A stretch of DNA of 64,000 bases from Hysterangium stoloniferum (taxonomy: Eukaryota > Basidiomycota > Agaricomycetes > Hysterangiales > Hysterangiaceae): the NCBI GenBank assembly GCA_015178975.1, contig WHVD01000045.1, positions 62,001 to 126,000 on the forward strand, read 5' to 3'. Position numbers and translations under genes: made by a program. A model generated the notes under the pieces. That model did not search any database and had not been told where the DNA came from. It saw only the letters and a list, made by a program, of their open reading frames with translations. Position 1 is the stretch's first letter; the number at the start of each line of letters is the position of its first letter. This document shows, piece by piece, positions 2,659 through 62,203 of the stretch.

Positions 2659-4620
2659 ATGTCTACTTTCAACGAGGCGACTCAGGGGAATGATGATTGG
2701 GCAACGGCTGGGATCTACCTTGAAGGTATTGAAGAGCTACCACCCTTAGTTTCCCCGGGTGTATTGACTTCAGAGAAACGGGACGAGATCGTTCAAGGGA
2801 TGAGAGAGATGTTCAGGGAGAAGCTTCAAGCACGATGGCGCTGTAACGAACCAGGCCATGATTTATGTTTTCGGGGCCTCGATGATGAGCAGCACATACA
2901 GCTGTCTGAAAACCATATAGAGGTCTGGGTTGACGGGTTGGTGAGTAAAGTATAATGCTATTTTCATGTGATCTGTGTTACATGCGGCAGATCTCAGTGT
3001 CAAGGAGAAACGACCTGCCATGACCCACCCACTGTGGTTAAAATATCCACCAACACGACATCCAACCTTAGCCCATATCTCAGTAATGCCGATGAATGGG
3101 GAATGATCTCACGGAGTCAGGGGACAATGTCAAGTATTGACATTGGCCCCGGGTATTGCTGTGGAGTCGGGTTGGAATGGGTTGGAATGAAAGTCCTTCA
3201 CAGTGCTAAGACAGCTTCGCTGATCGCAAAGCTGACAATATACCGGGAAATCGCCCGTTTGTTACGAGACGATGGTGCCTTTAGCAAGTTGCTATACAAG
3301 CATCTTACGCTGCCAAAACTGGGAAGACTAGTTCAGGATAGTGCTGATTTAGCGAGGTAGGGATACCTCAATCATTGAATACACTGGAAATACTCATATC
3401 TGAGTCGTAGACCTATATACCCGCCTCAAATTCGGAGAAGAGCGAGGGAAGTTTTAAAGAGTTTCCCGATATTTTCACACGTGCGGGGGAGCGGCAAAGG
3501 TCACACTACCGAGCTTATGACATTCTTGGCTTCGGCCTTCTTTTTCTGCCCCGGGGTTTATTGGTTAGATGGAGCCGCGTCACCTGCCGACGCGTCAACT
3601 GCGACGACGTCATCACTATACAACGTTTTAGTCAAGTCACCGCTGCACACCAACTTGGATGAGGTTGCATCATCATTTATCATACACATCGCCCGTTATT
3701 TCTCAGAATCTCATTATGTCTCATTTGATCGGCGCTTACCCCTTTCCCCCCTTATTCCTTTCGTGGAAGCGATCTGCCACATGCGTCCACTATCTGTAAA
3801 GGAGCTCACGGCGATCAGAGGTTGCATTGAATTATGGTTACAACCGTGCGTCGTGCCATCACACCATTTCATCCTTCCCACCAAAACCATAACAGAGAAT
3901 ATCAGACACAACCATTGAACTTTCATGAGTCTCCTATCCGGCTTCTCGTGTGTTGCATTCACCAAGTTGCATGGTTTCGAGATATCGCTGGAGCTGTATT
4001 GAAGGTTTTATTGGACAATATAAACATGTATATAGCGTCATTGACACTTCATCTTGATTGGCACACGTCGTACTTACTGTATCGGTGCATCGGCTCCTTG
4101 GAAACCTTCTTCAACGACAGCACGCTTCTCACCGATCACATCAACCAGCTGAAAGTGCTTTCTTCGCTCATTGGGCCCATCGTACGGTACGTTAACTATA
4201 TTTTATCTTCCAGCACCGTCTTACATCCGCCCATACAATTGTCCTACCAGTCTCATTATGCCACACACGAGCCCAGATTGGGTTCTCCTAGTGGCTGGCG
4301 AAAAAATAATCGACTTGACTCTGAAGTTGATAGGTGGATCTTCCGAGCCAGAATCTGCGTGTACCACAGTGCGCAGCGTCAATACCATCGCCATTCTCGT
4401 TTCCCTCCTTCCACATTGTGACACCATGCGCGGCTCGACCCATGACCAATTCATCAGGGAGTTTGAGCGTTTAGATTTGACCGCACGTTCTGTCCTTTGC
4501 GTGGTCGCCACCCCTTCCACTCGTGTGTCGGTAGGGTCTAATCAGTCCCCCATATCCGTGTTGGAGGAACATGGATACCCTGACAAAGGTCTTGCACCAT
4601 CAATTGGACACAATTCCTAA
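2659..4620 (+). CDS. Family-A protein, copy A1 (five exons, 578 aa)
   Basis: Function unknown; I do not recognise the family. Model: exons 2659-2940, 2998-3356, 3411-3845, 3896-4186, 4251-4620. Introns of 57, 54, 50 and 64 nt have donors GTGAGT, GTAGGG, GTGCGT and GTACGT and CAG/TAG acceptors; phases are 0, 2, 2 and 2, and joining them gives one open frame. Visible features: an acidic N-terminus starting MSTFNE, a CNEPGHDLC Cys/His motif near residue 75, a CQGETT..HDPP motif starting exon 2, SIDIGPG near residue 138, and a C-terminal half of hydrophobic helical segments (LLTDHINQLKVL, LTLKLIGGSS). The usual stop (AATTAG in sister copies) reads AATCAG here, so the C-terminus is about 25 residues longer. 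The start is the first ATG of the conserved exon 1. Confidence 0.75.
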
Positions 4621-4690
4621 TCATTTCTCTTTTGACAATGCCGACACATCTCAACCAAACGAGGAGGAGCCCAATAGCGTCCGCGTATGG

Positions 4691-5517
4691 TCAATTTGTA
4701 TTATCTCGGCGAGCTCTGCAGTTGTCCCCATATAGGTGGTGAATACATTTTGGGCCACTAGCCGTGCGTAGACTAAAATACGAATCATGAACGATAGATG
4801 TTTTTAAATAAGATATCGTTGAAGGTCTGGACAAGGCCTTCCCTGTCCCCAGTTCGATGCATGTCTCGTTCAGGATCATCATACCTTCAGGCCAGTGTTC
4901 AATCGACAAGATCCATGATCTTCGCACCAAGGGCCTCCACACCGTGCGAGTCAATGTGCTCGGCGAATTCCTTAAACTAATTCTCTTCCATTGAAAACTT
5001 GACAATAAAGCTGCCATAGGCTGAGCAAATATAAGAGCGCATACAGTCACTTTTCGCCGCCACTGCGCGCTCTGCATGTTGCACGCGTTGATGCCATACA
5101 TGTATAGGATACACTCGCGGCCACCACCAGCGGCTAGACTGATATCCTATTTATCAATGACAATCATTTCAAACAGGACGCGAACTTGAGAGTTGTATGA
5201 AGCTACATAATTTGATTCAACTTAGAAGCGAAGATCGTCACTTGTAATAGTCGCTGCGAGGTTCTCTACACTGGTATTGAATATACCCCAATGACTACTC
5301 GGTGAATTCACATCGCATATACTAGCAGTAACAATGTCAATCGAATACCACTACGGCGTCTCAAAGAAGGCGGTCCCACCATTCCTCTCGTGTCTTTTGT
5401 TTGGGAGGACAGGAAGCCGGGGCCAAACAAATGGAAAACACCATGATCAAGACACCGACATGTCTTCACATGTCGTGAGCTTTCACCTTGTATAAGAGAA
5501 ATGTAGCTCGTCGTCAT
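4691..5517 (-). pseudogene. Antisense ORF B, copy 1 (decayed)
   Basis: Lies tail-to-tail with gene A1. Two open blocks remain on the minus strand: 5517-5308 (starts MTTSYISLIQGE, ends with a hydrophobic LTLLLLVYAM stretch) and 5101-4691 (starts MYGINACNMQ). In other copies the same frame continues between the blocks through stop codons, with VASYNSQVRVLFEMIV and MYGINACNM in order, so this looks like one decayed gene, perhaps with a membrane segment. No family is assigned with confidence. Confidence 0.4.
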
Positions 5518-7952: not shown

Positions 7953-8018
7953 GGGTGACAGCGGCAATTTGACGGCAGCAACCATTGGGTATCGCTTTGG
8001 ACTGCATTTATAAGGTAC

Positions 8019-8348
8019 ATGGCAATGTCACCTCTCGATATCAGAAAAGCCGTTTTGCTTTCAACTCTGACGTTGAGAAATGCTATGCTATGTGACAATC
8101 GACTGAACCATTATTATATGCTGTGTGAGCCTTCAGTGGAAGGTGTAAGAAGTAGTGACCTCATTGCGGTGGAGGCTATAAGGTTCAAGGAAGGTGAGGG
8201 AACCTTATGGACGAAGGCAGGAATGAAATGCTGTGTATCCCGTGTAATTACAGCCATAACGCTGTACCTTAATGGAATTAGCTCTCCGACTGGTGGCGGC
8301 ACAAAAGCAAGGCACCCTTCTAGTGTAGGTGAGACTGCTACCCACTAA
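8019..8348 (+). CDS. ORF D, the most complete copy (109 aa)
   Basis: Reads MAMSPLDIRKAVLL... to GETATH, then TAA. It has five Cys and no clear signal peptide or motif; function is unknown. Its TAA shares the last A with the ATG of gene A2 (TAATG, 8346-8350). Other copies (2338, 14.1 kb, 30.8 kb, 41.7 kb, 60.06 kb, and minus 25878-25567) are shortened or shifted. It may therefore be leader DNA of gene A rather than a protein gene. Confidence 0.35.
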   Translation: MAMSPLDIRKAVLLSTLTLRNAMLCDNRLNHYYMLCEPSVEGVRSSDLIAVEAIRFKEGEGTLWTKAGMKCCVSRVITAITLYLNGISSPTGGGTKARHPSSVGETATH

Positions 8349-10270
8349 TGTCTACTTTCAACGAGACGACTCTGGGGAATGATGATTCGGAAACGGCTGG
8401 GATCTGCCTTGAAGACGTTGAAGAGCTACCAACCTTAGTTTCCCCCGGTGTATTGAGTTCAGAGCAACGGGACGAGATCGTTAAAGAGATGAGAGAGAGA
8501 TTCAGGGAGAAGCTTCGAGAACGATGGGGTTGTAACGAACCCGGCCACGATTTATGTGATCGGGTCCCCGATGGTAGACAACACATACAGCTGTCTGCAA
8601 ACCATATAGAGATTTGGGTTGACGAGTGGGTGAGTAAAGTATAATGCTATTTCCATGTGATGGGTCACATGTTGCAAATCCAGTGTCAAGGAGAAACGGG
8701 CTACCATGACCCACCGAATGTTGTTAAGATATCCACCAACACGACATCCAACCTCAGCCCCTATTCCAGTCATGCCGATGACTGGGGAATGATCTCGCGG
8801 AGTCAGGGGACAATGTCAAGTATTGACATTGGGCCCGGGTATTACTGTGGAGTCGGTTTGGAAAGGGTTGGGAAGAAAGTCCTTCACAGTGCTAGGACAG
8901 CTTTGCTGATCGCAAAGCTGACAATATACCGGAAAATCACCCGTTTGTTACGAGACCATGGTGCCTTTGGCAAGTTTCTACACAAGCATCTTACGCAGCG
9001 AAGACTAGGAAGACTAGTTCAAGACAGTGCTGATTTAGTGAGGTAGGGATACCTCAATCATCGAATACACTGGAAATACTCATATCTGAGTCGTAGACCT
9101 ATATACCCGCCTCAAATTCGGAGAAGAGCGACAGTGGTTTTAGAGAGTTTCCCGATATTTTCTTACGGGAGCGGCAAAGGTCACACTATGATGCTTATGA
9201 CATTCTTGGCTGCGGCCTTCTTTTACTGCCCCGGCGTCCATTGGGTAGATAGAGACGCGGCACCGTCGATTACGTCATCACTTTACAACATTTTTGTCAA
9301 GTCACCGCTGCACACCAACTTTGATGAGGTTGCATCAGCATTTATCATACACATCGCCCGTTATTCATCAGAATTTCATTATGTCTCAGAATTTCATTAT
9401 GTCTCAGAATTTCATTATGTCTCAGAATTTCATCATGTCTCAGAATTTGATCGGCGCTTCCCCCTTTTCGGCCTTACGAATATCGTGGAAGCGATCTGCC
9501 ACATGCGTCCACTATCTGTAAAGGAGCTCACGGCGATCAGAGGTTGCATTGAATTCTGGTTACAACCGTGCGTCGTGCCATCACACCATTTCATCCTTCC
9601 CACCAAAACCATAACAGAGAATATCAGACACAACGACTTGACCTTTATTATTATCCCATAAAGCTTCTCGTCTGTTGCATGCACCAAGATCCATGGTTTC
9701 GAGATATCGCTGGAGCTGCATTGAGGGTATTATTGGACGACATAAACATGCATATAGCGTCATTGACACTTCATCTTGATTTGTACACGCCGATGTCACT
9801 GTATCTGAGTATTTACTCCTTGGAAACCTTCTTCAACGACAGCACGCTTCTCACCGATCACGTCAACGAGCTGAAAGTGCTTTCTTCGCTCATTGGGCCC
9901 ATCGTACAGTACGTTCACAATATTTTACCTACCTGCAGCGTCTTACATCCGCCTATGAAACTTTCTTACCAGTCTGATTCTGACGCACACGAGTCCTGAT
10001 TGGTATATCCTGGAGTGTGGCGAAAAAATAATCGACTTGACTCTGAAGCTGATAGCTGGATCTTCCGAGCCAGAATCTGCTTGTACCACAGTGCGCAGCG
10101 TCGATACCATCGCCATTCTCGTTTCCCTCCTTCCACATTGTGAGATTATGCGCGGCACGACCAACAACAAATTTTTCAATTCCTTGCTTGAAACTTTAGA
10201 TTTAACCGCGCGTTCCTTCCTTTGCATGGTCGCCACACCTTCCACTTGTGTGTCAGTATGGTCTAATTAG
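8348..10270 (+). CDS. Family-A protein, copy A2 (five exons, 566 aa)
   Basis: The cleanest copy. Exons 8348-8629, 8684-9042, 9097-9567, 9618-9908, 9973-10270; introns 54, 54, 50 and 64 nt. Splicing gives one open frame ending at the family's usual stop (SVWSN-stop). It shares the exon 1 CNEPGHDLC motif, exon 2 start CQGETGYHDP and the hydrophobic C-terminal half with A1. Exon 3 has a private 18-bp in-frame expansion: SEFHYV repeated three times, then SEFHHV and SEFD (about 9368-9450). Donor 4 is GTACGT preceded by ACA rather than ACG. No function is assigned. ORF D ends on its start codon, and ORF B converges from downstream. Confidence 0.78.
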
Positions 10271-11579: not shown

Positions 11580-12431
11580 CTCTTGAACATATTGCCCGTT
11601 ATCTCATAGAATTTCATCATCTCTCGCCAATTTTTGGCCTTGTGTATATCGTGGAAGCGATCTGCCACGTCAACTATCTGTAGAGGAGCTCACAGCGATC
11701 AGAGGTTACATTGAATTCTGGTTACAACCGTGCGTCCCCACATCACATCATTTCATCCCGCCCACCAAAAGCATAACAGACAAAGTCACCGGCCGCTAAT
11801 TTCCTCATCTGAACATCCTATACGGCTTCTCGTGTGCTGCATCCACCAAGATGCATGGTTTCGAGATTTTCCTGCAGCGGCATTGAGGGTTATATTGGAC
11901 GACATAAACGTGCATATAGCGTCATTGACACTTCATCTTGATTTGGAGACATTAGATTTATTGTGGGGGAGTATTTACTGCTTGCAAATTTTCTTCAACG
12001 ACAGCACGCTTCTCACCGACCACATCTGCCAGCTGAATGTGGTTTCTTCGCTCATTGGGCCCATCGTACGGTATGTTCACAATTTTTACCTTATTGCACC
12101 GTCTTACATCCGCCCATGAAACTGTCCTACCAGTCTCGTTCTGACCCACACGAGTCGTAATTGGCGTCTCCTTATGTGTGGTAATCGAATAATCGCATTG
12201 ACTCTGAAACTGATAGTTGGATCTTCCGAGCCCGAATCCACATGTACCACAGTGCGCAGCCTCGATAGGATCCCCCTGCTCGCTTCTCTTCTTCCACATT
12301 GTGACATAATGCACAGCTCGAGCAATGACCCCTCCATCAGTTACCCGCCCAAGTGTTTAGATTTGACCGCACGTTCCTTCCTTTGCGTGGTCGCCACACC
12401 TTCCACTCATGTATCGGTAGGGTCTAATTAG
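11580..12431 (+). pseudogene. Partial family-A copy A2b (exon 3 end to exon 5)
   Basis: Begins abruptly inside exon 3 near 11580. Exon 4 (11780-12070) and exon 5 (12134-12431) keep their lengths of 291 and 298 nt, the 63-nt intron with a GTATGT donor, and the normal stop (SVGSN-stop). The upstream half of the gene is missing: the left border joins spacer sequence directly to exon 3, so this is a recombination product and not a complete gene. Confidence 0.65.
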
Positions 12432-14529: not shown

Positions 14530-15560
14530 ATGTCTCCTTTAAACGAGACGACTCTGGGGAATGACGATTCGGCTACGGCTGGGATTTACCTTGAAGACAT
14601 TGAGCAGCTACCACCCTTAATTTCCCCGGGTGTATTGAGCTCAGAGAAACGGGACGAGATCATTAAAGAAATGAGAGAGATATTCAGGGAGAAGCTTCAA
14701 GAACGATGGCGCTGTAACGAACCTGGCCATTATTTGTGTTATCGGGCCCCCGATGATGAGCAGCACATACAACTGTCTGCAAACCATATAGAGGTCTGGG
14801 TTGACGAGTTGGTGAGTAAAATATAATGCTATTTCCAGCGTGATCTGTGTCAGATGAGGCACATTTCAGTGTCAAGGAGAAACGACCTACCATGACCCAC
14901 CCACTGTTGTGAAGATATCCACCGACACGACATGCAACCTCAGCCCGTATCACAGTCATGCAGAGGACTGGGGAATGATCTCAGGGAGTCTTGAAACATC
15001 GTCAAGTATTGAAATTGGCCCCGGGTATTACTGTGGAGTCGGTTTGGAAAGGATTGGGATGAAAGTCCTCCACAGTGCGAAGACAGCTTCACTGATGGCA
15101 AAGCTGACAATATACAAAGAAATCATGAGTCAATTGTCTCAAGACAGTGCCTGTAGCAAGGTTCTACGCAAGCATCTCACCCTGCCAAGATTGGGAAGAC
15201 TAGTTCGAGAGAATGTTGAATTAGCGAGGTAGGGATACCTTAGCGTCAATCATTGAATACACTGGAAATACTCACGTCCTTTGTAGGCCCACATACCCAC
15301 CTCAAATTCGGAGACGAGCATGGACGGTTTTAAAGGAGTACTTGGTGCCTTCACTTCATATGCGGCGAAGTAGCAAAGGTCACACTACCCAGCTTATGAC
15401 ATCCTTGGCTTCGGCCTTCATGTGGTGTCCCGGCGTCCATTGGTTAGAAAGAGACGCGTCACTATGCGATGTGATTTCAGCGAGTAGTCATTGGAGTATA
15501 TTGAATACCAGTGTAGAGAGCCTCGCAGCGACTATTACAAGTGACGATCTTCGCTTCTAA
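14530..15560 (+). pseudogene. Family-A copy A3, truncated and joined to ORF B
   Basis: Exons 14530-14811 and 14870-15228 are intact; intron 2 (15229-15286) has the long form with a CTCACGTCC branch region. Exon 3 starts at 15287 and stays open, but near 15474 the A sequence stops and sense-oriented ORF B sequence begins (CGATGTGATTTCAGCG). The frame continues through the junction and ends at 15560 as SDDLRF-stop. The chimeric frame would give about 305 residues, but the whole C-terminal half is lost. Confidence 0.65.
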
Positions 15561-16250: not shown

Positions 16251-17581
16251 CTAATTAGAACGTACTGACACACAAGTAGAAGGTGTGGCGACCACGCAAA
16301 GGAAGGACCGCGCGGTGAAATATAAATCTTTAACCGAATAATTGAAGAAATCGTCGTTGGTCGTGCCGCGCATAATGTCACAATGTGGAAGAAGAGAAAC
16401 GAGAATGGCGATGGTATCAAGGCTGCGCACCGTGGTCAACGCAGATTCGGGCTCGGAAGATGCAGCTATCAGCTTCAGAGTCAAGTCAATTATTCTTTCG
16501 CCAGACACCAGGAAAAACCAATCTGGGCTCGTATGTGTCAGAATGAGATTGGTAGGACAATTGTATGGCGGATGTACTGGAAGATAACATATAGTGAACG
16601 TACCGGACGATGGACCCAATGAGCGAAGAAACCACATTCAGCTCATTGATGTGATCGGTGAGAAGCGTGCTGTCGTTGAAGAAGGTTTCCAAGGAGGCAA
16701 TACTCCGATACAGTGAGTTCGACGTGTCGCTATCAAGATGAAGTGTCAATGACGCTATATGCATGTTTATGTCATCCAATAAAACCCTCAATACAGCTAC
16801 AGCGATATCTCGAAACCATGCATCTTGGTGCATGCAACACACGAAAAGCTCTATAGGATATTCATACAATCCAACTCGTGTCTGATATTCTCTGTTATGG
16901 TTTTGGTGGGAAGGATGAAATGGTGTGATGGCACGACGCACGGTTGTAACCAGAATTCAATGCAACCTCTGACCGCCGTGAGCTCCTTTACAGATAGTGG
17001 ACGCATGCGGCAGATCGCTTCCACGATATACATAAGGCCGAAAAGGGGTATGGGCCGATCAAATCCTGAGACATAATGAGATTCTGAGAAATGACCGGCG
17101 ATGTGTATGATAAATGTTGATGCAACCTCATCAAAGTTGGTGTGCAGCCGTGTGCAGCCGTGACTTGACTAAAGCGTTGTAAAGTGATGACGTAATCGAC
17201 GGTGACGCGTCTCTATCCCACCAATGGACGCCGGGGCAGTAAGAGAAGGCATAAGCCAAGAATGTCATAAGCTCGGTAGTGTGACCTTTGTCGCTCCCCG
17301 GCATGTGTGAAAATATCGGGAAACTCTGTAAAACTTCCGTCGCTCTTCGCCGAATTTGAGACGGGTATATAGGTCTATGACTCAGATATGTGTATTTCCA
17401 GTGTATTCAATGATTGAGGTATCCCTACCTCGCTAAATCAGCACTATCCTGAACTAGTCTTGCCAGTTTTGGCAGCGTAAGATGCTTGTGTAGAAACTTG
17501 CTAAAGGCACCATGGTCTCGTACCAAACGAGTGATTTTCCGGTATATTGTCAACTTTGCGATCAGCGAAGCTGTCTTAGCA
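16251..17581 (-). pseudogene. Family-A copy A4, 3' half (exons 2-5)
   Basis: Reading minus: the end of exon 2 (17581-17429), exon 3 (17374-16942), exon 4 (16891-16604) and exon 5 to the normal stop at 16251. The exon 4/5 acceptor has lost its AG (CTACCAAT instead of CTACCAGT). The exon 3 region holds a GCAGCCGTGT duplication near 17150. The first half lies at 22662-23155 and 25521-25547, separated by a copia element and a second insertion. The copy is inactive. Confidence 0.7.
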
Positions 17582-17586
17582 CTGTG
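17582..17586. repeat. Target-site duplication of copia element (left)
   Basis: CTGTG flanks the element on both sides (17582-17586 and 22657-22661). Removing the element and one CTGTG restores exon 2 of gene A exactly. Confidence 0.85.
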
Positions 17587-17821
17587 TTTTAGTTTAAATA
17601 CAAAGAGTGCACACGAAGTTTAAGTAGACGAAGTAATGCTTTGGGTTTTTTAGTTCGTGAGATACAACAACTAAGGTATTTATATACAAATACAGCTCCA
17701 AGATGTATGTCATGCTATGTATATGAGATAATTGGAGCGAATGACGAAATGAGCATAATTGGTAATACAACCTGTTTAGGTAATCGATTGACGGAATACG
17801 CGCAGGCTTGCAATTCAAACA
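17587..17821 (-). repeat. Copia LTR (3' LTR in element orientation)
   Basis: 235 bp, matched by 22422-22656 with about 3 differences. In element orientation it begins TGTTGGAATTG... (here TGTTTGAATTG) and ends ...TTTAAACTAAAA. Confidence 0.9.
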
Positions 17822-22421: not shown

Positions 22422-22656
22422 TTTTAGTTTAAATACAAAGAGTGCACACGAAGTTTAAGTAGATGAAGTAATGCTTTGGGTTTTTTAGTTCGTGAGATAC
22501 AACAACTAAGGTATTTATATACAAATACAGCTCCAAGATGTATGTCATGCTATGTATATGAGATAATTGGAGCGAATGACGAAATGAGCATAATTGGTAA
22601 TACAACCTGTTTAGGTAATCGATTGACGGAATACACGCAGGCTTGCAATTCCAACA
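22422..22656 (-). repeat. Copia LTR (5' LTR in element orientation)
   Basis: 235 bp; the partner of 17587-17821. Followed in element orientation by GGTTATGGGCCCCGACC, which is where the primer-binding site should lie. Confidence 0.9.
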
Positions 22657-22661
22657 CTGTG

Positions 22662-23155
22662 AAGGACTTTCATCCCAACCCATTCCAAACCAACTCCACA
22701 GCAATACCCGGGGCCAATGTCAATACTTGACATTGTCCCCTGACTCCATGAGATCAGTCCCCAGTCATCAAGGTTGGATGTCGTGTTGGTGGATATCTTA
22801 ACAACAGTGGGTGGGTCATGGCAGGTCGTTTCTCCTTGACACTGAGATCTGCCGCATGTAACACAGATCACATGAAAATAGCATTATACTTTACTCACCA
22901 ACCCGTCAACCCAGACCTCTATATGGTTTGCAGACAGCTGTATGTGCTGCTCATCATCGAGGACCCGATAACATAAATCATGGCCTAATTCGTTACAGCG
23001 CCATCATTCTTGAAGCTTCTCCCTGAATATCTCTCTCATCCCTTGAAGGATCTCGTCCCGTTTCTCTGAAGTCAATACACCCAGGGAAACTAAGGGTGGT
23101 AGCTCTTCAATGTCTTCAAGGTAGATCCCAGCCGTTGCCAAATCATCATTGTTGA
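22662..23155 (-). pseudogene. Family-A copy A4, exon 1 (most) and exon 2 start
   Basis: Minus strand: exon 1 from 23155 to 22899, the GTGAGT donor at 22898-22893, then exon 2 from 22842 to the copia target site. Exon 2 has an in-frame loss of nine codons after TSNL (the SPYSSHA stretch is missing). The first codons of exon 1, with the ATG at 25547, lie beyond the second insertion. Confidence 0.65.
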
Positions 23156-23598: not shown

Positions 23599-23603
23599 CA
23601 CTT

Positions 23604-27365: not shown

Positions 27366-28276
27366 AATTAGACCGTACTGACACACAAGTGGAAGGTGTG
27401 GCGACCACGTAAAGGAAGGAACGCGTGGTAAAATCTAATTTTTTAACCGAGTAATTGGAGAATTTGTGCCGCGCATAATGTCACAATGTGGGAGAAGAGA
27501 AACGAGAATGGGGATGGTATCGTGGCTGCGCACCGTGGTCAACGCAGATTTGGGCTCGGAAGATCCAGCTATCAGCTTCAGAGTCAATGCGATTATTCGC
27601 TCACCATACCCAAGGAGATCCCGATTAGGACTCGCTTCCATCAGAATGAGACTGGTAGGACAGTTTCATGGGCGGATGTAAGACGGTGCTATAAGGTAAA
27701 AAATTGTGAACGTACCGTGCGATGGGCCCAATGAGCGCAGAAACCACATTCAGCTGGTTGATGTGATCGGTGAGAAGGATGCTGTCGTTGAAGAAGGTTT
27801 CCAAGGAGTAAAGATTCCAATACAGTAAACATGATGCCTCTGAATCAATATGATGTTTCAATGACACTATAAGCATGTGTATCTCGTCCAGTTGAATGTT
27901 TAATACATCTCTAGCAATGTCTCGAAACCATGCATCTTGGTGGATGCAACACACGAGAAGCCGTATAGGATTTCTATAATGGGGAGATAGTCGGTAATTT
28001 TGTCTGTTATGTTTTGGTGGGGAGGATGAAATGATGTCATGTCGCGACGCACGGTTGTAACCAGAATTCAATGTAACCTCTGATCGCCGTGAGCTCCTCT
28101 ACAGATAGTTGACGCACGTGGCGAATCGCTTCCACAATATACACAAGGCCGATAATGGCCCAGGGCTCATGAGATCCTGATAGAAAACTGGCGATTTGTG
28201 TGATAAATGTTGATGCAACCTCATCCAAGTTGGTGTGCAGCGGTGAATTGACGAAGACGTTGTAAAGTGATGACGT
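27366..28276 (-). pseudogene. Family-A copy A5 (exons 3-5)
   Basis: Minus strand: part of exon 3 (28276-28053), exon 4 (28003-27716), exon 5 from 27651. Exon lengths and splice sites are conserved; exon 5 runs to an altered stop at 27435 because of an indel (TRLKN-stop). Exon 3 begins abruptly at a junction with ORF B sequence at 28276. Confidence 0.6.
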
Positions 28277-31137: not shown

Positions 31138-31155
31138 ATATCTACCTTCAATGAG

Positions 31156-35350: not shown

Positions 35351-35400
35351 TCGGGAGGATTGAGTGCGATTCCCAAATATTCGAGAGGCTACAGTGGGAT

Positions 35401-40853: not shown

Positions 40854-41135
40854 ATGTCTGCTCTCAATGAGACAACTCGGGGGAATCACGATGAGGTAAC
40901 GGTTCAGACCTACCTTGAAGGCGTTGAACTACCACCCTTAGCCCCCCCAGGTGTATGGAATTCAGAGCAACGGGACCAGATCATTCAGACTGGGATGAGA
41001 GATATATTCAGGGAGAAGCTTCGAGAACGATGCAGATGTAACGAACCCGGCCATGATTTATGTTATCGGGCCCCCGATGATGGGCAGCTGATACAACTGT
41101 CTGCAAACCATATCGAGATTTGGGTTGACGAGTGG
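40854..41135 (+). pseudogene. Family-A copy A8 (exon 1 only)
   Basis: Complete 282-nt exon 1 with a normal GTGAGT donor at 41136. After about 25 nt of intron 1 the sequence switches to the spacer that precedes ORF C. No other exon follows, so this is a lone exon. Confidence 0.65.
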
Positions 41136-42031: not shown

Positions 42032-43310
42032 ATGTCTACCTTCAACGAGATGACTCTGGGGAATCACGATTTGGCAACGGCTGAGTCCTACCTTGAAGAT
42101 GTTGAGGAACTACGACCCTTAGTTTCCCCAGGTGTATTGAGTTCAGAGCAACGCGACCAGATCATTAGGATGGGGATGAGAGAGATATTCAGGGAGAGCC
42201 TTCAAGAAAGATGGCGCTGTAACGAACCCGGCCATGATTTATGTTATCGGGACCCCGATGATGAGCAGCACATACAGCTGTCTGCAAACCATATAGAGGT
42301 CTGGGTTGGCGAGTTAGCGAGTAAAGTAAAATGTTATTTCCATGTGATCGGTGTTACATGCGGCACATTTCATTGTCAAGGAAAAACGACCTACCATGAC
42401 CACCCACTGTTGTTAAGGTATCTACCCACACGAGATCCAGTCTCAGCCTGTATCGCAGTCATGCTGAGGACTGGGGAAAGATCGCAAGGAGTCTTGGGAC
42501 ATTATCAAGTATTGAAATTGGCCCCGGGTATTACTGCGGAGTCGGTTTGGAAAGGGTTGGTATCACAGTCCTTCACAGCGCAAGAAAGCTTCTTTGATGG
42601 CAAAGCTGACAATATACCGGCATCATAAGTCAATTGTCTCCAGGAAACTGTGCCGTTAGCTAGTTTCTACACAAGCATCTAACCCTGCCAAGATTGGGAA
42701 GACTACTTCAAGAGAGTGTCGACTTAGCGAGGTAGGATACCTTAGCGTCAATCATTGAATACACTGGAAATACTCACGTCCTTTGTAGGCCCGCATACCC
42801 GCCTCAAATTCGGAAACGAGCATGGATGGTTTTAGATGAGGTCCCGATGTATCCACTTCACATGCACCGGAGTAGCAGAGGTCACACTTATGACATATTT
42901 GGCTTCGGCCTTCACGTGGTGTCCCGGCGTTCATCCGTCAGATAGAGACGCGTCAACTGCGATTACGTCATCACTTTACAACGTTTTAGTCAAGTCACCG
43001 ATGCACGGCAACTTTGATGAGGTTGCATCAACATTTATCATACACATGGCCCGTTATCTATCAGAATTTCATGATTCCGCGCCCTGGACCATTATTGGTC
43101 TCTTCGGTATCACGGAAGCGATCTGCCACTTGCGTCAACTATCTGTAGAGAAGCTCACGGCGATCAGAGGTTAACATACAACCGTGCGTCGCCACATGAC
43201 ATCATTTCATCCTGCCCACCAAAACTATAACAGACAAAGTCACCGGCAACTATCTCTCCATTATGACTATCCTATATGGCTTCTTGTATGTTGCATCCAC
43301 CAAGATGCAT
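42032..43310 (+). pseudogene. Family-A copy A9 (intron 1 donor lost, truncated)
   Basis: Exon 1 42032-42316 is intact. The donor GTGAGT is GCGAGT here, and the stop normally inside intron 1 (TAATG) has changed, so the frame reads straight through the intron into exon 2 (CQGKTTYHDH). A one-base loss then shifts exon 2, and the frame ends at 42628. Exon 3 (about 42788-43200) and the start of exon 4 follow; the copy stops at a copia LTR at 43311. Confidence 0.6.
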
Positions 43311-43711
43311 CTATAACAAATATACTCAGTTGACACGTAAGGGTGATTCGACTGAGGTATGGATGTGTAACTGTTGTAGTTAAATACTCTTTGGTTGACG
43401 TACAACTGAGATGGTAATACGTGTTCTAAGGTATGATATGACTGGGTACTGTCATATAAGCTTGATATGGGATGGGACAGTGTTATTTGGTGACATTGTG
43501 TTAGTTTAAACTTAAGCTTGGGCGCAACTTAAGCTTGGGCGCACGAGCCTATTTCAACACTCCCCCTGGCTCGGCGCGCCCTCGCAGAGTCGTAATTCGA
43601 CACAATGCCTGTGGAAGAGCACCCTGGCCAGTGGTTTTGTGAACATATCGGCGAGGTTGCTGCTAGACGGAGTGTGGTGTACTTCGATGTCTCCTTCCTC
43701 CACGCGTTCCC
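43311..43711 (-). mobile_element. Copia remnant: LTR plus end of pol
   Basis: Fossil. The 43311-43559 stretch ends (plus) CCTATTTCAACA, i.e. begins TGTTGAAATAGG in element orientation, as copia LTRs do, and contains a direct repeat of CTTAAGCTTGGGCGC. 43560-43711 encodes on minus the last part of copia RNase H (RERVEEGDIEV, NLADMFTKPLAR). The rest of the element is missing. It is a different family from the element at 17.6 kb. Confidence 0.8.
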
Positions 43712-50056: not shown

Positions 50057-51616
50057 CTACGAAGACCGCATATCAAGTGGGAATGCAGGTGTCGGATAAT
50101 CATCATACTCGGCCTCGCCGTCAAGGAACCGTCTTAGCCGTGCGACCTGTGATGACAGGTACATGATGATAATTTGCATTTTGAGATCCAACTTGAGCTT
50201 CAGTAGCTCTTGACAGGTCGCCAGCGCCTGTGTGCGTGTGTTGACAAACATATTTCCTTCAAAGCCCAGGTTCTTCAGGTGATCAATGAGCTCACTGAAC
50301 TCGGAACACCAGCCGAGCACGCCCAGCTATACAACCATCAGTTTTCCGCAAGTCTCGATAGAAAACATGCACCATACCTGGCCGTACTGCTTGTACTGTG
50401 CGTAAAGAACGTTCGGCGCGGCTTGCAAGGCGTAGATAAATGCCTCATTTTGTTCGACTACGCCTGGCATCGGAATATAAGGCGGCGAAATTGTGTCCGG
50501 AGCTGCGGGCTCTGGCTTTGGAGGGGGGTTCTGAGTTAATCATACCTGTCAGATAGAGTACCCTCACGAAGCAAATACTCAGACATACCGAGAACCAGTT
50601 GAAGTTTTCATATTCCCATTCATCCCCCAAATCAATGGTCGGGTTGGCATTGGTAGGCATGTTGAGGAAAGGTTTGGGGGGTAGCTCGAGATTTTCAGGA
50701 AGTTTCTCGAGTTCGTGAGGTGCACGGTGTCGAGAAGGGCGGCGGGAAGGTGTGAAGAACTGCTGTTGTTGAGAATCTTCTGTGGGGGCAAGTTGTTGTT
50801 TAGACGGCTTGCGAGATGTGAAGCGGGATAAAGAGAAGGATGATTTCCTAGAGCGCTCGCGAGGGGCTTCTTGAGTTGCAGAGTGGCGGAAGGCGGAACT
50901 TCTTGGGGATATGGAGTACCTGCGGCGTAAACTGTGACGTCTGAGTCGGCCTGGACAGTTACTTGCGAGGGGTTCTTGGAAAGGACTTTCGAACTTCTCC
51001 TAGAGCTTAAATGGGGAAGGGCACGACGGATAATCGATCGGAGTTTAAATGTCGTTGCCGATGGAGAACGGGAGGCCGGGCGGGATCGAGACTGCCAAGT
51101 GCCGCGTGTCAGAACCAATTACATAATCAACAGATCGGAGTGAGAATAATATTACCTTGTGCGAGGTGGGAGATTGCGGGGGGGTTCGGAACGGTGTACC
51201 TGGAGGAGTGGGAGCAACTGGTACGTTGAAGATGTGGTCAGGGGAGACGGATTGTAATGTCTCAGGATCTTCTGTCTTTTTGTTACCCCCAAAATACAGA
51301 TGCTTGTGCAGAAACTTGCTGAACACCCCGTCGTCTTCAGACAATCGATCTAAGATTTGCTCGTATATTGTCAACTTTGCCCTCAGCAAACCTGTCTTCG
51401 CACTGTGAAGGACTTCGATCCCAACGCTTTCCAAACCGACTCCACAGTAATACCCGGGCCAATGTCAATACTCCAAGATGTCCCAACATACTCCGAGTCC
51501 ATTCCCCAGTCCTCTGCATGACTGCGATATGGGCTGAGGTTGAATGTCGTGTTGGTGGATATCCAAGCCTTCTCAACAACAGTCGGTGGGTCATGGCAGG
51601 TCGTTTGTCCTTGACA
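50057..51616 (-). CDS. Chimeric gene: family-A exon 2 joined to unrelated exons
   Basis: Minus strand. Exons: 51616-51156, 51091-50920, 50869-50589, 50530-50378, 50326-50057; introns of 64, 50, 58 and 51 nt, all with GTANNN donors and AG acceptors, each keeping frame. The first exon is gene-A exon 2 (starting CQGQTTCHDP, later HSAKTGLLRAKLTIYE) extended by FGGNKKTEDPETLQ and a Pro-rich PTPPGTPFRTPP. Later exons encode Ser/Arg-rich sequence (SRSRPASRSPS), a Gln run, LGDEWEYENFNWFS, AFIYALQAAPNVLYAQYKQYG and a helical C-terminus ending FPLDMRSS. Compared with other A copies one base is missing near 51455, which breaks the first exon. No exon 1 is found, as unrelated sequence begins at about 51662. 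The 3' exons alone look like a sound host gene of unknown function. Confidence 0.6.
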
Positions 51617-54600: not shown

Positions 54601-54639
54601 GGTACCCTCTTCTAGTGTTAGTAAGACTGCTACCCACTA

Positions 54640-57007
54640 ATGCCTCCTTTCAACGAGACGACTCTGGCAAATGGCGATTCGGCTACGGCTGGGATTTACC
54701 TTGAAGACATTGAGGAGCTACCACCCTTAGTTTCCCCGGGTGCATTGAGCTCAGAGAAACGGGACGAGATCATTAAAGGGATGAGAGAGCTATTCAGGGA
54801 GAAGCTTCAAGAACGATGGCGCTGTAACGAACCTGGCCATTATTTGTGTTATCGGGCCCCCGATGATGAGCAGCACATACAACTGTCTGCAAACCAAATA
54901 AAGAGTTGGGTTGACGAGTGGGTGAGTAAAGTATAATGCTATTTCCATGCGATCTGTGTCACATGCTGCGCATTTTAGTGTCAAGGAGAAACAGGCTACC
55001 ATGACCCACCGAATGTTGTTAAGATATCCAACACGAGATCCAACCTCAGCCCGTATCGCAGTCATGACGATGACTGGGGAATGAGCTCACGGAGTCTTGG
55101 GACATCATTAAGTATTGAAATTGGCCCTGGGTATTACTGTGGAGTCGGTTTGGAAAGGGTTGGGATGAAAGTCCTGCACAGTGCAAAGAAAGCTTCGCTG
55201 ATGGCAAAGCTGACAATATACGGGCAAATAATGAGTCAATTGTCTCAAGACAACGGTGCCTTCAGCAAGATTCTACACAAGCGTCTCACCCTGCCAAGAT
55301 TGGCAAGACTAGTTCAAGAGAGTGTTGATTTAATGAGGTAGGGATACCTCAGCGTCAATGATTGGACACTCGAAATACTTATGTCTGAGTCGTAGACCTA
55401 CATACCCGCCTCAAATTCGGAGAAGAGCGAGGAGGGTTTTAGTTGAGGTGTATCCACCTCATATCCAGCGGAGTAGCAGGGTTGGGGCCCCCAGTGCTCG
55501 TGGTGAGGGGCGGAGAGGCGGATGACAGTGAACAGGTTTGGGGACCTCTGAATTCACTGCTCTGTCAAAGTCGGCAGCCTTCAGCCGCGCACCAGTGTCG
55601 TCTGCGGAACGTCACTGGCACCTACCAACCATGACTGTTGCCTGGCAGCGGTCTACCCTTCCTACCCACCTCCGACTCCAGCATTCACCTATGCACTAGC
55701 AATGCAAGACTTCGGTGTGCCTGCAGCCCTTGTCGACGCCTGCTAGCAGGATCTCGGGCTTTTCTTGGGGCTTCGGCCCAAGGCCTCAAGGCCTCAGCTC
55801 TATACCATGTATATATCAACATGCCCCCCCCTTTGCTTACTAAAATCCCTTCCGCACACGTAGCTCACTCGGAACTTCGTACCACCGTAGCATAGTTTCT
55901 CTGGGGGCCTTTTCACCCCCTAGCCGCAGTTAGCCATTGTTGCTTGAAGCGGGATACAAATATATCAAAAAAAAAAAAAAAAAAAAAAAAGGTGGTCACG
56001 AGCTTATGACATCTTTGGCTTGGGCCTTCCTGTGTTGTCCGGGCGTTCATTGGACAGACGGAGACGCGTCATCTGCAATAACGTCATCACTTTATAACAT
56101 TTTAGTAAAGTCACCGCTGCACACCAACTTGGATCAGGTCGCATCAACATTTATCATACACATCGCCCGTTCTGTAATAGAGTTCCATGATCTCTTACCC
56201 CTTTTCTGCCTTGTGTATATCGTGGAAGCGATCTGCCACGTGCGTCAACTATCTGTAGAGGAGCTCACGGCGATGAGAGGTTACATTGAATTCTGGTTAC
56301 AACCGTGCGTCGCGACATCACATCATTTCATCCTGCCCACCAAATCCACAACAGACAACACCGCCAGCGACTATCTCTTTTTTATATCTATCCTACACGG
56401 CTTCTCCTGTGTTGCATCCACCAAGATGCATGGTTTCGAGATTTTGCTGGAGCTGTATTGAAGGGTTTAGTGGACGACATAAACATGCACATAGCGTCAT
56501 TGAGAGATCATATTGATTTCGTCTTATCGGACTCACTGTATTGGAGTATGCGCTCCTTGCGAACCTTCTTCGACGACAGCACCCTTCTCACCGAACACAT
56601 CAACGAGCTGAATGTGGTTTCTTCGCTCATTGGGCCCATCGCAAGGTACGGTCACGATATTTTACCTCATGGCACCGTCTTACATCCGCCCGTGAAACTG
56701 TCCTACCAGTCTCATTCTGATGGAAGCGAGTCCACATTACGCACTCTTGCGTTCTGCTGACATAATAATAGCGGTTACTCAGAAGCTGATAGCTGGATCT
56801 TCCGAGCCCGAATCTGCGTGTACCATAGTGCGTAGCCTCGACACTATCACCATTCTCGTTTCTCTCCTTACACATTGTGACGTGATCCGTGGCTCAACCA
56901 ATTACCAATCCATCAGTTGCTGGCTTGCGTGTTTAGATTTCACCGCGCATTCTTTCCTTTGCGTGGTTGCCACTCCTTCCACTCGTGTGTCGATAGGGTA
57001 TAATTAA
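54640..57007 (+). pseudogene. Family-A copy A11, exon 3 split by a SINE-like element
   Basis: Exon 1 54640-54921, exon 2 54979-55337, exon 3 begins near 55400 and is interrupted at 55479-55990. Exon 3 resumes to 56304; exon 4 56355-56645; exon 5 56710-57007 with the normal stop (SIGYN-stop). Intron 3 (50 nt) and intron 4 (64 nt) are normal. Apart from the insertion the copy would be nearly complete. The start codon context ATGCCTCC differs slightly (MPPFNE). Confidence 0.7.
55479..55990 (+). mobile_element. SINE-like retroposon, longer copy
   Basis: About 510 bp with no coding capacity, ending GGGATACAAATATATC plus about 25 A. The left border is the conserved AGTAGCA of exon 3 and the right border GGTCAC of the same exon. 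The head region (GGTTGGGGCCCCCAGTGC... GGTTTGGGGACC) is only weakly like pol III boxes, so the source RNA is unclear. A second, truncated copy is at 23604-23931. Confidence 0.7.
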
Positions 57008-57456: not shown

Positions 57457-59241
57457 ATGTCTACTGTCACCGAAATGACTCTTGAGAATCACAATTTGGC
57501 AATGGCTGAGTCCTACATTGAAGACGTTGGGGAACTACCACCCTTAGTTTCCCCAGATGTATTGAGTTCAAAGCAACGGGCCCAGATCATTCAGGAGGGG
57601 ATGAGAGAGATATCCAGGGACAAACTTCAAGACCGATGGGGTTGTAACGAATCCGGCCATGATTTATGTGATAAGCCTCCCGATGACGAGCAGCCACATA
57701 CAACTGTCTGCAAACCAAATAGAGATTTGCGTTGACGAGTGGGTGAGTAAAGTATAATGCAATTTCCATGTGATCTCTGTCACATGCTGCGCATTTCAGT
57801 GTCAAGGAGAAACGGGCTACCATGACCCACCAAATGTTGTTGAGATATCCACCAACACGACATCCAACCTCAGCCCCTACTGAAGTCATGCCGATGACTA
57901 GGGAATGATCTCGCGAAGTCAGGGGACAATGTCAAGTATTGACATTGGCCCCAGGTATTACTGTGGAGTCGGTTTGGAAAGGGTTGGGATGAAAATCCTT
58001 CACAGTGCTAAGACAGCTTCGCTGATCGCAAAGCTGGCAATATACCGGGAAATCGCCCGTTTGTTACAAGACGATGGTGCCTTTGGCAAGTTTCTACACA
58101 AGCATCTCACGCTGCCAAGACTAGGAAGACTAGTTCAAGACAGTGCTGATTTAGCGAGGTAGGGATACCTCAACCATTTCATACACTGGAAATACTCATA
58201 TCTGAGTCGTAGACCAATGTACCCGCCTCAAATTCGGAGAAGAGCGACGGAAGTTTTAAAGAGTTTCCTGATATTTTCAAAAGGTTACAGTACCCAGCTT
58301 ATGACATTCTTGGCTTTTGCCTTCTCTTACTGCCCGGGCGTTTATTGGTTCGATGGAGCCGCCTCCTCACCTGCCGACGCGTCAACTGCGATGACGTCAT
58401 CACTATACAACGTTTTAGTCGTCACCACTGCACACCAACTTTGATGAGGTTGCATCATCATTTATCATACACATCGCCCGTTATCTAACAGGATTTCATC
58501 ATCCCTTTCCCATTTTGGGCCTTGTGTATATCGTGAAAGCGATCCGCCACGTGCGTCAACTATTTGTAGAGCACGGCGATCACAGGTTACATTGAATTGT
58601 GGTTACAACCGTGCGTCGCGCCATCACATTATTTCATCCAAATTCCCAAAACCATAACAGACAAAATCACTGGCAACTACCTCCCTTTTATCAAAATCCT
58701 ATACGGCTTCTCGTGTGTTGCATCCACCAAGCTCCATGGTTTCGAGACATTGCTGGAGATGTATTGAAGGTTATAGTGGACGACATAAACATGCATACAG
58801 CGTCATTGACACGTCATATTGATTCGGAAGCATCACGTTTACTGCATTGCAATATTCAGTCCTTGCAAATCTTCTTTGACGACAGCACGCTTCTCACCGA
58901 TCACATCAACCAACTGAATGTGGTTTCTTCATTCATTGGGCCCATCGTACGGTACGTTCACCATATTTTACCTTATAGCACCGTCTTACATCCGCCCATG
59001 AAACTGTCCTACCAGTCTTATTCTGATGGAAGCGAGTCCAAATTACCCGCTCTTGTGTTCTGCCGACACAATAATGGAGGTTACTCTGAAGCTGATAGCT
59101 GGATCTTCTGAGCCCGAATCCGCATGTACCACAGTGCGCAGCCATGATACCATCTACATTCTCGTTTCTCTCCTTCCACATTTTGAGGTAATGGGCGGCC
59201 CGAGCAATATCCAATTCATCAATTACAGGCTTAAGCGTTAA
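57457..59241 (+). pseudogene. Family-A copy A12 (all exons present, broken)
   Basis: Exon 1 starts MSTVTEMTLENH and is shifted by one extra base near 57690. Exon 2 (57800-58158) has stops where TGCAGTC became TGAAGTC and TGGGG became TAGGG. Exon 3 has lost bases near 58420. Exon 4 and exon 5 (RCCG-type ends) are open, and exon 5 ends at 59241 (YRLKR-stop). At least four disabling changes. Confidence 0.6.
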
Positions 59242-59661
59242 TATTTGACCGCACATTCTTTCTTTTGTGTGGTTGCCACTCCTTCCACTCGTGTGTTGGT
59301 AGGGTATAATGAGAACTCCATATCAGTGTTGGAAAACATGGTTCCCCTGAAAGGTTTCTCGGAAGTATGTTAAGACTCAGGGTAGCTCGTCCATTCCTTG
59401 ACGGAAAAACTAGCCAGAACGAGAAAATGAAGGATCGATTGTGGTGACAAACCCAGGGCTGCGATGAATGGCTATCGTGTGGGAACGAAGAGGGATTGCT
59501 ACGGTGACTTATGTGGTACTCAAAGGGCACAGTGGAATTGGCAGCACCGAAGGGGGCAGAAAGATGGTAGAAAAGGAGAATGTACATTATTAGCATAGCC
59601 AGCATGGTGAATCTGTACATACCGCAAGAGCTGCAATAGGTCAAACTACGGTTGGGTCGCA

Positions 59662-59982: not shown

Positions 59983-60376
59983 GGCTGACAGCGGGAACTT
60001 GAAGGCAGTAACCATTGGGCATCGCTCTGGACTGTATTTATATGGTACATGGCAATGTCACTTCTCGATATCAGAAAAGCCGTTTTGTTTTCAACTCTGA
60101 GGTTGAAAAATGCTATACTATGTGACAATCGACTACCATTATTATATGCTGTGTGAGCCTTCAGTGGAAGGTGGAAGAAGTAGTGACCTCATTACGGTGG
60201 AGCCTATAAGGTTCAAGGAAGGTAAGGAACCTTATGGACGAAGGCAGGAATGAAATGCTGTGTATCCCGTGTAAGTACAGCCATAACGCTGTACCTTCAT
60301 GGAATTAGCTCCCCGACTGGTGGCGGCACAAAAGCAAGGCACCCCCTTCTAGTGTAGGTGAGACTGCTACCCACTA

Positions 60377-62203
60377 ATGTCTACTTTCAACGAGACGACT
60401 CTGGGGAATGATGATTCGGCAACGGCAGGGATCTACCTTGAAGACATTGAAGAGCTACCACCCTTAGTTTCCCCGGGTGTATTGACTTCAGAGAAACGGG
60501 ACGAGAACGTTAAAGGGATGAGAGAGATGTTCAGGAAGAAGCTTCGAGAACGATGGGGTTGTAACGAACCCGGCCACGATTTATGTTATCGGGCCCCCGA
60601 TGGTAGGCAACACATACAGCTGTCTGCAAACCATATAGAGATTTGGGTTGACGAGTGGGTGAGTAAAGTATAATGCTATTTCCATGCGATGTGTGTCATA
60701 TGCTGCGCATTCAGTGTCAAGGAGAAACGAGCTATCATGACCCACCGAACGTTGTTAAGAGATCCACCAACACGGCATCCAATCTCAGCCCCTATTGCAG
60801 TCGTGCCGATGACTGGGGAATGATCTCACGGAGTCAGGGGACAATGTCAAGTATTGACATTGACCCCGGGTATTGCTGTGGAGTCGGTTTGGAATGGGTT
60901 GGAATGAAAGTCCTTCACAGTGCTAAGACAGCTTCGCTGATCGCAAAGCTGACAATATACCGGGAAATCGCCCGTTTGTTACGAGACGATGGTGCCTTTA
61001 GCAAGTTGCTACACAAGCATCTTACGCTGCCAAAACTGGGAAGACTAGTTCAGGATAGTGCTGATTTAGCGAGGTAGGGATACCTCAATCATTGAATACA
61101 CTGGAAATACTCATATCTGAGTCGTAGACCTATATACCCGCCTCAAATTCGGAGAAGAGCGACGGAAGTGTTAAAGAGTTTCCCGAGATTTTCAAGAAAA
61201 GGTCACACTACCGACCTTATGACATCCTTGGCTTAAGCCTTCTTTTTCTGCCCCGGCGTTTATTTAGATAAAGACGCGTCACCAAAGGCGATTACGTCAT
61301 CACTATACAACGTTTTAGTCAAGTCACCGCTGCACACCAACTTGGATGAGGCTGCATCATCATTTATCATACACATCGCCGGTTATCGTGATCTCTCACT
61401 CACTTACGGCCTTGTGGGTATCGTGAAAGCGATCCGCCACGTGCGTCAACTATTTGTAGAGCACGGCGATCACAGGTTACATTGAATTGTGGTTACAACC
61501 GTGCGTCGTGCCATCACACCATTTCATCCTTCCCAACAAAACCATAACAGACAATATCAGACACAACGACTTGACTTTTCTGAGTCTCCTATCCGGCTTC
61601 TATTGTGTTGCATTCACCAAGATGCTTGGTTTCGAGATATTGCCGGAGCTGTATTGAGGGTTTTATTGGACGACATAAACATGCATATAGCGTCATTGAC
61701 ACTTCATCTTGATTGGTACACGTCGAACTCACTGTCTCGGAGCATTGACTCATTGCAAACCTTCTTCAACGACAGCACGCTTCTCACCGATCACGTCAAC
61801 CAGCTGAAAGTGCTTTCTTCGCTCATTGGGCCCATCGTACGGTACGTTCACCATATTTTATCTTCCAGCACCGTCTTACATCCGCTCATACAATTGTCCT
61901 ACCAGTCTCATTCTGACACACACGAGCCCAAATTGGGTTATCCTATTGTCTGGCGAAAAAATAATCGACTTGACTCTGAAGCTGATAGCTAGATCTTCCG
62001 AGCCCGAATCCGCATGTACCACAGTGCGCAGCCTCGATGCCATCTCCATCCTTGTTTCTCTCCTTCCACATTGTGACGTAATGCGCGGCTCGACCAACGA
62101 CAAATCCTTCAATTACTGGGTGGAAAATTTAGATTTCACCCCGCGTTCCTTCCTTTGCGTGGTCGCCACACCTTCCACTTGTGTGTCAGTACGGTCAAAT
62201 TAG
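60377..62203 (+). pseudogene. Family-A copy A13 (one stop in exon 3)
   Basis: Exons 1 (60377-60658), 2 (60715-61073), 4 (61551-61841) and 5 (61906-62203, ending SVRSN-stop) have the family lengths and open frames. Exon 3 (from 61128) contains TAA at 61234-61236 where sisters read TCG, and has lost bases near 61262. Very close to A1 in exon 2, so the break is recent. Confidence 0.65.

What the first reader, a model, noticed from the sequence alone, without database searches (positions are those of the whole stretch)
2659..62203. Unrecognised gene family A: about thirteen copies with one conserved five-exon structure
Gene A recurs on both strands. Introns of about 54-57, 54-58, 50 and 63-64 nt sit at identical positions and phases (0, 2, 2, 2), and splicing turns fragments in different frames into a single 566-578 aa protein in A1 and A2. 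The frame logic holds independently in A2b, A11 and A13. I know no family with its motifs (CNEPGHDLC, CQGETT..HDPP). Short-intron conservation across copies shows the array grew by DNA duplication, not through RNA.
Basis: partly seen in the sequence, partly recalled or inferred. Interest (0 to 1): 0.75.

Follow-up and report, generated by a model that had tools for sequence, protein, structure and literature searches.

The report
Huge fast-changing mushroom gene family
A fungal genome carries hundreds of shuffled copies and fragments of one unassigned five-exon gene, many still readable, whose protein changes quickly while its reading frame is kept; what the protein does is not known.

Summary
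The five-exon gene is real. A1 (2659-4620, 578 aa) and A2 (8348-10270, 566 aa) splice cleanly through four GT-AG introns. Of 16 pieces modelled in the window, five have all five exons and only A1 and A2 have whole, unbroken genes. The family is far larger: the 111 Mb genome holds 480 matches to the start of exon 2, 304 to the 3' end and 272 to the start codon, controls 0; fragments and uncollapsed haplotypes are included. Introns keep their places down to 56% protein identity. Frames look selected: 8 stops seen against 95 expected in 26 copies; exon indels are multiples of three in 45 of 60, intron indels in 3 of 17. Yet pN/pS is about 0.7 in exons 1-2 and 1.0 in exons 3-4. Paralogs exchange sequence. 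No transposon ends and no Pfam, PHROGs or PDB relative were found; structure models are weak and all-helical. Best reading: a functional family growing by segmental duplication and shuffled by ectopic recombination, with a conserved Cys/His N-part and a variable C-part, perhaps for recognition. The function is inference.

The parts
2659..4620 (+). A1, intact five-exon gene (exons 2659-2940, 2998-3356, 3411-3845, 3896-4186, 4251-4620), 578 aa; runs 25 codons past the usual family end
8348..10270 (+). A2, intact five-exon gene (exons 8348-8629, 8684-9042, 9097-9567, 9618-9908, 9973-10270), 566 aa; in-frame 18 bp repeat, 4.5 copies, at 9368-9448
7966..8347 (+). conserved leader/promoter-like block of A2 with a TTTGGACTGCATTTATA-type box at about 7996; a like box lies upstream of copies in many loci, including distant L039-L041 and L043-L045 (L042 did not come up)
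11588..12428 (+). A2b: 3' part only (end of exon 3, exons 4 and 5), of a second sequence type about 75% like A2 in DNA
14530..15461 (+). truncated copy, exons 1, 2 and start of 3
16254..17595 (-). truncated copy, end of exon 2 to exon 5, one frameshift in the model
22638..23150 (-). truncated copy, exons 1-2, one stop
27367..28276 (-). truncated copy, end of exon 3 to exon 5, one frameshift in the model
29575..30058 (+). divergent relic, parts of exons 3-4
31138..31954 (+). truncated copy, exons 1, 2 and start of 3 (ATA instead of ATG)
40854..41135 (+). exon 1 only
42032..43324 (+). degraded copy, exons 1-4 (1 stop, 5 frameshifts in the model)
51297..51616 (-). exon 2 fragment
54640..57004 (+). 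A11: all five exons, exon 3 interrupted by an insertion of about 550 bp with a poly(A) end
57457..59310 (+). A12: all five exons, 3 stops and 3 frameshifts in the model
60377..62200 (+). A13: all five exons, 1 stop and 1 frameshift in the model
62389..62682 (+). exon 5 only

Best explanation
A functional, lineage-expanded protein-coding gene family of a mushroom-type fungus. Shown by computation: five exons with fixed introns; hundreds of places in the genome; copies in tandem and segmental duplications; exchange of sequence between paralogs (ectopic recombination or gene conversion); reading frames kept far better than chance while exons 3-4 show no net protein-level constraint. Inferred: each intact copy makes a protein of about 550 aa, probably intracellular, with a Cys/His-rich, possibly metal-binding N-terminal part (C62, H67, C70, H79, C95, H102 in A2 numbering) and a variable, probably helical C-terminal part that binds partners which themselves vary, so that copy number and shuffling supply diversity (recognition of self/non-self, or conflict with a parasite or selfish element). 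The recognition role is in my view the most likely use but has no direct evidence.
For: Structure and splice sites. Places in the genome 480 / 304 / 272 by three patterns with up to 3 mismatches, reversed-pattern controls 0. Introns of 57/57/49/63 nt at the same places in L040, 56% identical to A2. Frames: 8 stops seen against 94.6 expected and 20 stop-free against 3.9 expected, in 26 full-length copies (21 in loci I chose from the DNA hits, 5 in the window); indels; projection. Fast change: pN/pS 0.71, 0.69, 1.02, 1.01, 0.82 for exons 1-5 in 14 intact copies; plain NG86 median 0.72 over 171 pairs of 19 intact copies; exons differ more than introns (mean p-distance 0.130 and 0.104, 153 pairs of 18 intact copies). 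Shuffling: linkage between paralog sites falls from r2 0.176 to 0.044 with distance, permutation 0 of 1000; the nearest relative differs between N- and C-part in 17 of 19 intact copies (no null run for this count). Duplication units: about 5.7 kb between A1 and A2, about 9-11.5 kb on C528, C162 and C174. No membrane-spanning stretch (best 19-residue Kyte-Doolittle means 1.4-1.7 in the nine proteins scanned). Both structure models all-helical.
Against: No transcript or protein was seen. A ratio near 1 in exons 3-4 is also what relaxed selection gives, and no exon has pN significantly above pS (highest bootstrap share 0.66, exon 2 of the four-copy group). The restraint in exons 1-2 is itself only marginal in the 14 copies (bootstrap P(pN>pS) 0.062 and 0.050) and clearer in all 19 (0.013 and 0.045). 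Recombination lengthens tip branches, so the 95 expected stops are to some degree too many. 15 of 34 full-length models carry a stop or frameshift (A2 among them, as a query artefact). Models have pLDDT 44 and 55, and helix periodicity was barely above chance (8% of windows at P<0.05), so the domain picture is weak. Metal binding rests on conserved residues only.
Confidence: 0.55

Rival explanations
1. Selfish genes that work like the wtf spore killers of fission yeast: compact multi-exon genes that multiply in clusters, diversify by gene conversion and in-frame repeats, and bias their own transmission.
For: Parallel evolutionary habit: multi-exon, clustered, paralog exchange, in-frame repeat growth in A2, fast protein change. 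The wtf paper (PMC9562144, passages seen) names gene duplication, expansion and contraction of repeats within the coding sequence, and non-allelic gene conversion as the wtf pattern.
Against: Sequence relation to wtf was not tested; no membrane-spanning stretch (that Wtf proteins span membranes is recalled); no upstream frame kept across the 39 leaders looked at; alternative starts inside the gene were not tested; no drive data.
Confidence: 0.13
2. The gene belongs to a DNA transposon or other mobile element, and the copies are insertions.
For: Hundreds of dispersed places, isolated truncated copies on large contigs (L039 on C113, L046 on C2), DNA-level spread with introns kept. KDZ transposases are present in the genome.
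Against: No common ends, judged by eye: upstream of the apparent 5' border (7993) most listed copies still share sequence (A1 is an exception), and the 3' border (11588) is shared only by A2 and L016, L017 and L027 among the rows listed. Tandem units of two sizes. No transposase-like Pfam hit in the gene or in the 10 ORFs tested, of 27 listed, in the 10.5 kb unit. Target-site duplications were not scored.
Confidence: 0.12
3. Mostly dead repeat: an old gene amplified as part of satellite-like DNA, with the intact copies just young.
For: dN/dS near 1 in exons 3-4 and for the closest pair; 15 of 34 full-length models damaged; 11 of 16 window pieces truncated.
Against: 8 stops seen against 94.6 expected, 20 of 26 stop-free against 3.9 expected; exon indels 45 of 60 multiples of three against 3 of 17 in introns.
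Confidence: 0.1
4. Much of the copy number is an assembly effect: two nuclear haplotypes kept apart in a 111 Mb assembly of 554 contigs.
For: Near-identical sets such as L016/L017/L027 (tip branches 0.000-0.006) and copies on C316, C63 and C547 with nearly equal scores.
Against: The sampled copies are mostly distinct (median gene identity 88.3% over the 253 of 276 pairs aligned), and many lie on one contig; by inference at most about half the count would go.
Confidence: 0.1

Closest known systems
wtf killer meiotic driver family of Schizosaccharomyces (PMC9562144, passages seen)
   Same: multi-exon genes, clusters, non-allelic gene conversion, in-frame repeats inside the coding sequence, rapid protein change
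   Different: hundreds of places rather than tens (the wtf number is recalled); no membrane-spanning stretch; no drive evidence; a different, Cys/His-bearing protein
Large recombining recognition families (NLR-type genes of fungi, surface-antigen families of parasites); recalled, not compared here
   Same: conserved part joined to a variable part, clustered copies, paralog exchange, frame kept under fast change
   Different: no NACHT, NB-ARC or other known domain found by Pfam
Helical-repeat (ARM/HEAT-like) proteins
   Same: both weak models are all-helical
   Different: no Pfam repeat hit; best PDB fold match E 0.046, to a designed helical filament, so not shown

Membership tests
wtf-type killer meiotic drivers | clustered multi-exon family with non-allelic gene conversion | tested here: met
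   supported
wtf-type killer meiotic drivers | membrane-spanning protein (recalled) | tested here: not met
   best 19-residue hydropathy means 1.4-1.7 in the nine proteins scanned
wtf-type killer meiotic drivers | sequence relation to Wtf proteins | not tested
   no Wtf sequence was compared
wtf-type killer meiotic drivers | transmission bias with poison and antidote forms | not testable with these tools
   needs crosses
DNA transposon gene | fixed element ends with target-site duplications | tested here: not met
   by eye: no end common to the listed copies; target-site duplications not scored
DNA transposon gene | transposase or other element protein | tested here: not met
   10 of 27 listed ORFs of the 10.5 kb unit
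Retroposed family | intronless copies | tested here: not met
   introns present in 34 of 34 full-length models
ARM/HEAT helical repeat protein | sequence-profile or confident fold match | tested here: inconclusive
   no Pfam hit; models pLDDT 44 and 55; PDB best E 0.046
Metal-binding N-terminal domain | conserved Cys/His ligands | tested here: inconclusive
   C62 98%, H67 95%, C70 100%, H79 98%, C95 91%, H102 98%, at sites covered by about 44-47 of 57 models; binding not tested
Any Pfam family | profile score above cut-off | tested here: not met

The most novel reading that the evidence does not exclude
One of the largest diversifying gene families in any fungus: several hundred loci of a protein type without known relatives, in which exchange between copies joins a more conserved N-terminal module to a freely varying, probably helical C-terminal module, creating a repertoire used in self/non-self recognition or genetic conflict (a killer or resistance repertoire) in mushrooms.
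Probability: 0.18. Interest if true: 0.85.

Novelty: new member of a known kind. Interest (0 to 1): 0.52.

Why it matters
If the family is expressed, hundreds of places in a fungal genome encode or once encoded one unassigned protein type whose frame is kept while its sequence is shuffled, which is the pattern of recognition or conflict genes. It would be a good test case for how fungi build variable repertoires. It also warns that repeat masking may hide functional genes: 44.8% of this window is DNA like the family's repeating unit.

Tried and rejected
Transposon reading: apparent borders at 7993 and 11588 recurred in the first comparisons. One search shows shared sequence upstream of 7993 in most listed copies, and 11588 shared only by A2, L016, L017 and L027; rejected as element ends.

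Gene-limited homogenisation: the multiple alignment showed diversity of 0.06-0.14 in the gene and 0.21-0.23 upstream and further downstream. A pairwise check reproduced this upstream (gene more alike in 97 of 146 pairs, median difference 8.6 points) but not downstream (115 of 189, 0.8 points), so the claim was dropped.

Upstream frame: A2 has a 109-codon frame ending on the gene's start codon, but most other copies lack it.

Prokaryote or viral origin: pattern-led scans confirmed no relative in viral contigs (6 stretches) or genome contigs (52 stretches). rDNA unit: Rfam 0 hits in 9,901 bases of the unit and in the window.

Structure: two AlphaFold2 jobs gave weak all-helical models; fold search on the C-part gave 500 matches at E<=10 and 0 at E<=0.001; the N-part model was too weak to search. 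A codon-model omega from IQ-TREE did not print and is not used.

Papers: five searches (one search was about wtf genes, one search found none) showed no paper on such a family in the rows and abstract starts listed; only PMC9562144 was opened, for passages. UniProt, NCBI nr and MycoCosm were not available.
Full report
What was checked. Hydrophobin (PF01185, 18 matches) and KDZ transposase (PF18758, 71 matches) hits, absent from the tool's 14 control genomes, and short introns point to a mushroom-type basidiomycete (that these are typical of that group is recalled).

The gene. A1 and A2 each give one open frame once four introns are removed: 57/54/50/64 nt and 54/54/50/64 nt, all GT-AG, 578 and 566 aa. 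I wrote a spliced protein-to-DNA aligner and ran it over the window and loci L009-L038. It gave 34 full-length models, 19 with no stop and no frameshift. A2 counts as broken there only because the query lacks its in-frame repeat; against itself it is clean. In 24 full-length copies of the A1/A2 subfamily, introns 2-4 have GT and AG in 24 of 24; intron 1 has GT in 21, GC in 3, and AG in 23. In 39 of 39 copies with a 360-nt leader an in-frame stop precedes the start by 3-34 codons; 3 of them have ATA for ATG.

The window. Beside A1 and A2 there are three more copies with all five exons: 54640-57004 (exon 3 split by an insertion with a poly(A) end), 57457-59310 (3 stops, 3 frameshifts) and 60377-62200 (1 stop, 1 frameshift), and 11 truncated pieces on both strands, 16 in all; further decayed relics lie at 6405-7178. 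DNA like the unit 7816-11588 covers 28,652 of 64,000 bases, 44.8%.

The genome. A 1.25 kb DNA query gave 54 matches with only 40 of 1183 candidates scored; the A2 protein gave 241 exon matches with 77 of 4290 candidates scored. Three short patterns with up to 3 mismatches gave 480 (exon 2 start), 304 (3' end) and 272 (start codon) places, with 0 in the reversed-pattern controls. These count fragments too, and near-identical sets (L016/L017/L027) warn that separate haplotypes or recent duplications are included. Distant subfamilies exist: L040 on C84 is 56% identical to A2 in protein with introns of 57/57/49/63 nt at the same places. In other distant models the fit is less exact: intron 3 is placed differently in L037 and L041, and L043 has an insertion in exon 2. 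The L040/L041 subfamily recurs at spacings of about 9-11.5 kb on C528, C162 and C174. In that unit 10 of 27 listed ORFs, one of them the gene itself, were tested and none had a Pfam hit at E<=0.1; Rfam gave none.

How it spreads. The introns are present in 34 of 34 full-length models, so RNA copying is not the route. Judged by eye, the apparent 5' end is passed by shared sequence in most listed copies (A1 is an exception), and the apparent 3' end is shared only by A2, L016, L017 and L027, so there are no common element borders. The units of A1 and A2 begin about 5.7 kb apart in the same order. Within the gene, 245 informative sites in 24 copies show linkage falling with distance (r2 0.176 under 20 bp, 0.044 at 1200-1900 bp), and 0 of 1000 permuted site orders are as compatible as the real one. 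In 17 of 19 intact copies the nearest relative by exons 1-2 is not the nearest by the C-terminal part (no null was run for this count). This is the mark of exchange between paralogs. Diversity is lower in the gene than upstream, which a pairwise check confirms; the apparent rise downstream is not confirmed.

Selection. If unconstrained, the tip branches of 26 full-length copies (21 from loci I chose out of the DNA hits, and 5 in the window) should carry 94.6 stops; 8 are seen. 20 are stop-free against 3.9 expected. Recombination lengthens tips, so the expectation is somewhat too high, but the gap is about tenfold. Unique alignment gaps are multiples of three in 45 of 60 cases in exons and in 3 of 17 in introns, over 33 copies. 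A plain projection of exon borders gives 15 of 24 stop-free copies. Against this, amino-acid change is little restrained: pN/pS is 0.71, 0.69, 1.02, 1.01 and 0.82 for exons 1-5 in 14 intact copies, plain NG86 gives a median dN/dS of 0.72 over 171 pairs, and A1 against A2 gives 0.82-0.94. The restraint in exons 1-2 is marginal in the 14 copies (bootstrap 0.062 and 0.050) and clearer in all 19 (0.013 and 0.045); no exon has pN significantly above pS. Positive selection is thus possible but not shown. Frame selection with a ratio near one in exons 3-4 fits a mixture of conserved and diversifying sites, or relaxed constraint in a protein whose frame still matters.

The protein. No significant match in Pfam, PHROGs or PDB sequences, none confirmed in viral or prokaryote contigs. 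W60, C62, H67, C70, H79, C95 and H102 to P105 are among the conserved residues, a possible metal site interrupted by intron 1. No membrane-spanning stretch in the nine proteins scanned. AlphaFold2 with window-only alignments gave all-helical models with pLDDT 44 (N-part, with intron read-through) and 55 (C-part), and the C-part has no confident fold match. That the C-part is a helical repeat is a guess.

Interpretation. The best account is a real, expanded, recombining gene family with a more conserved N-part and a variable C-part, used for recognition or conflict. The family-level statements are computed; the role is inference. The nearest parallel in habit is the wtf family (PMC9562144, passages seen), from which it differs in protein type and in the lack of any drive evidence. 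I file it as a member of no known family. Because no fungal protein collection could be searched, it may already be held elsewhere as unnamed hypothetical proteins; hence 'new member of a known kind' (expanded recombining gene families) and a middling interest score.

Noticed in passing
about 55441-56001, related copy 23594-23931: An insertion of about 550 bp ending in a run of more than 20 A splits exon 3 of the copy at 54640; its last ~340 bp are 98.8% identical to 23594-23931, and another part is 90% like L025:1442-1697. Looks like a non-LTR retroposon or SINE; Rfam gave no match.
   Followed up: partly
17827-22393 (-): Copia-type retrotransposon: Pfam RVT_2, E 4e-63 for 17830-19686; the neighbouring open frames look gag- and integrase-like (my reading, not searched).
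   Followed up: partly
24192-24800 (+): Tc1/mariner-type transposase fragment (Pfam HTH_Tnp_Tc3_2, E 3e-9).
   Followed up: partly
32644-33095 and 35102-35802: Satellite stretches of 10/20 bp units (GACTCTTTGT and TTGCGACTCT types) on either side of a block with long overlapping ORFs at 33.6-34.9 kb.
   Followed up: no
49328-49612: Nearly perfect 20 bp tandem repeat, 14 copies (CGTCCTACCACATGTCTGGC, 98% matches).
   Followed up: no
242-1704 and 2077-2305: Pyrimidine-rich ~67 bp minisatellite and an 18/37 bp TTTGTAACC minisatellite that abuts the start of A1's unit at 2306.
   Followed up: no
14086-14216: 65 bp direct duplication of the TATA-like block upstream of the copy at 14530 (93% matches).
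   Followed up: no
6405-7178: Decayed, more divergent relics of the same family between A1 and A2: a CQGETTYHDP piece on + and a TNFEDVVSTFIIQIA piece on -.
   Followed up: partly
44396-45220 (-) and 45833-47470 (+): A SET-like stretch (my reading; no Pfam hit at E<=0.01) and a RING-type gene (Pfam E 5e-4, below the curated cut-off) inside the array; perhaps ordinary host genes.
   Followed up: partly
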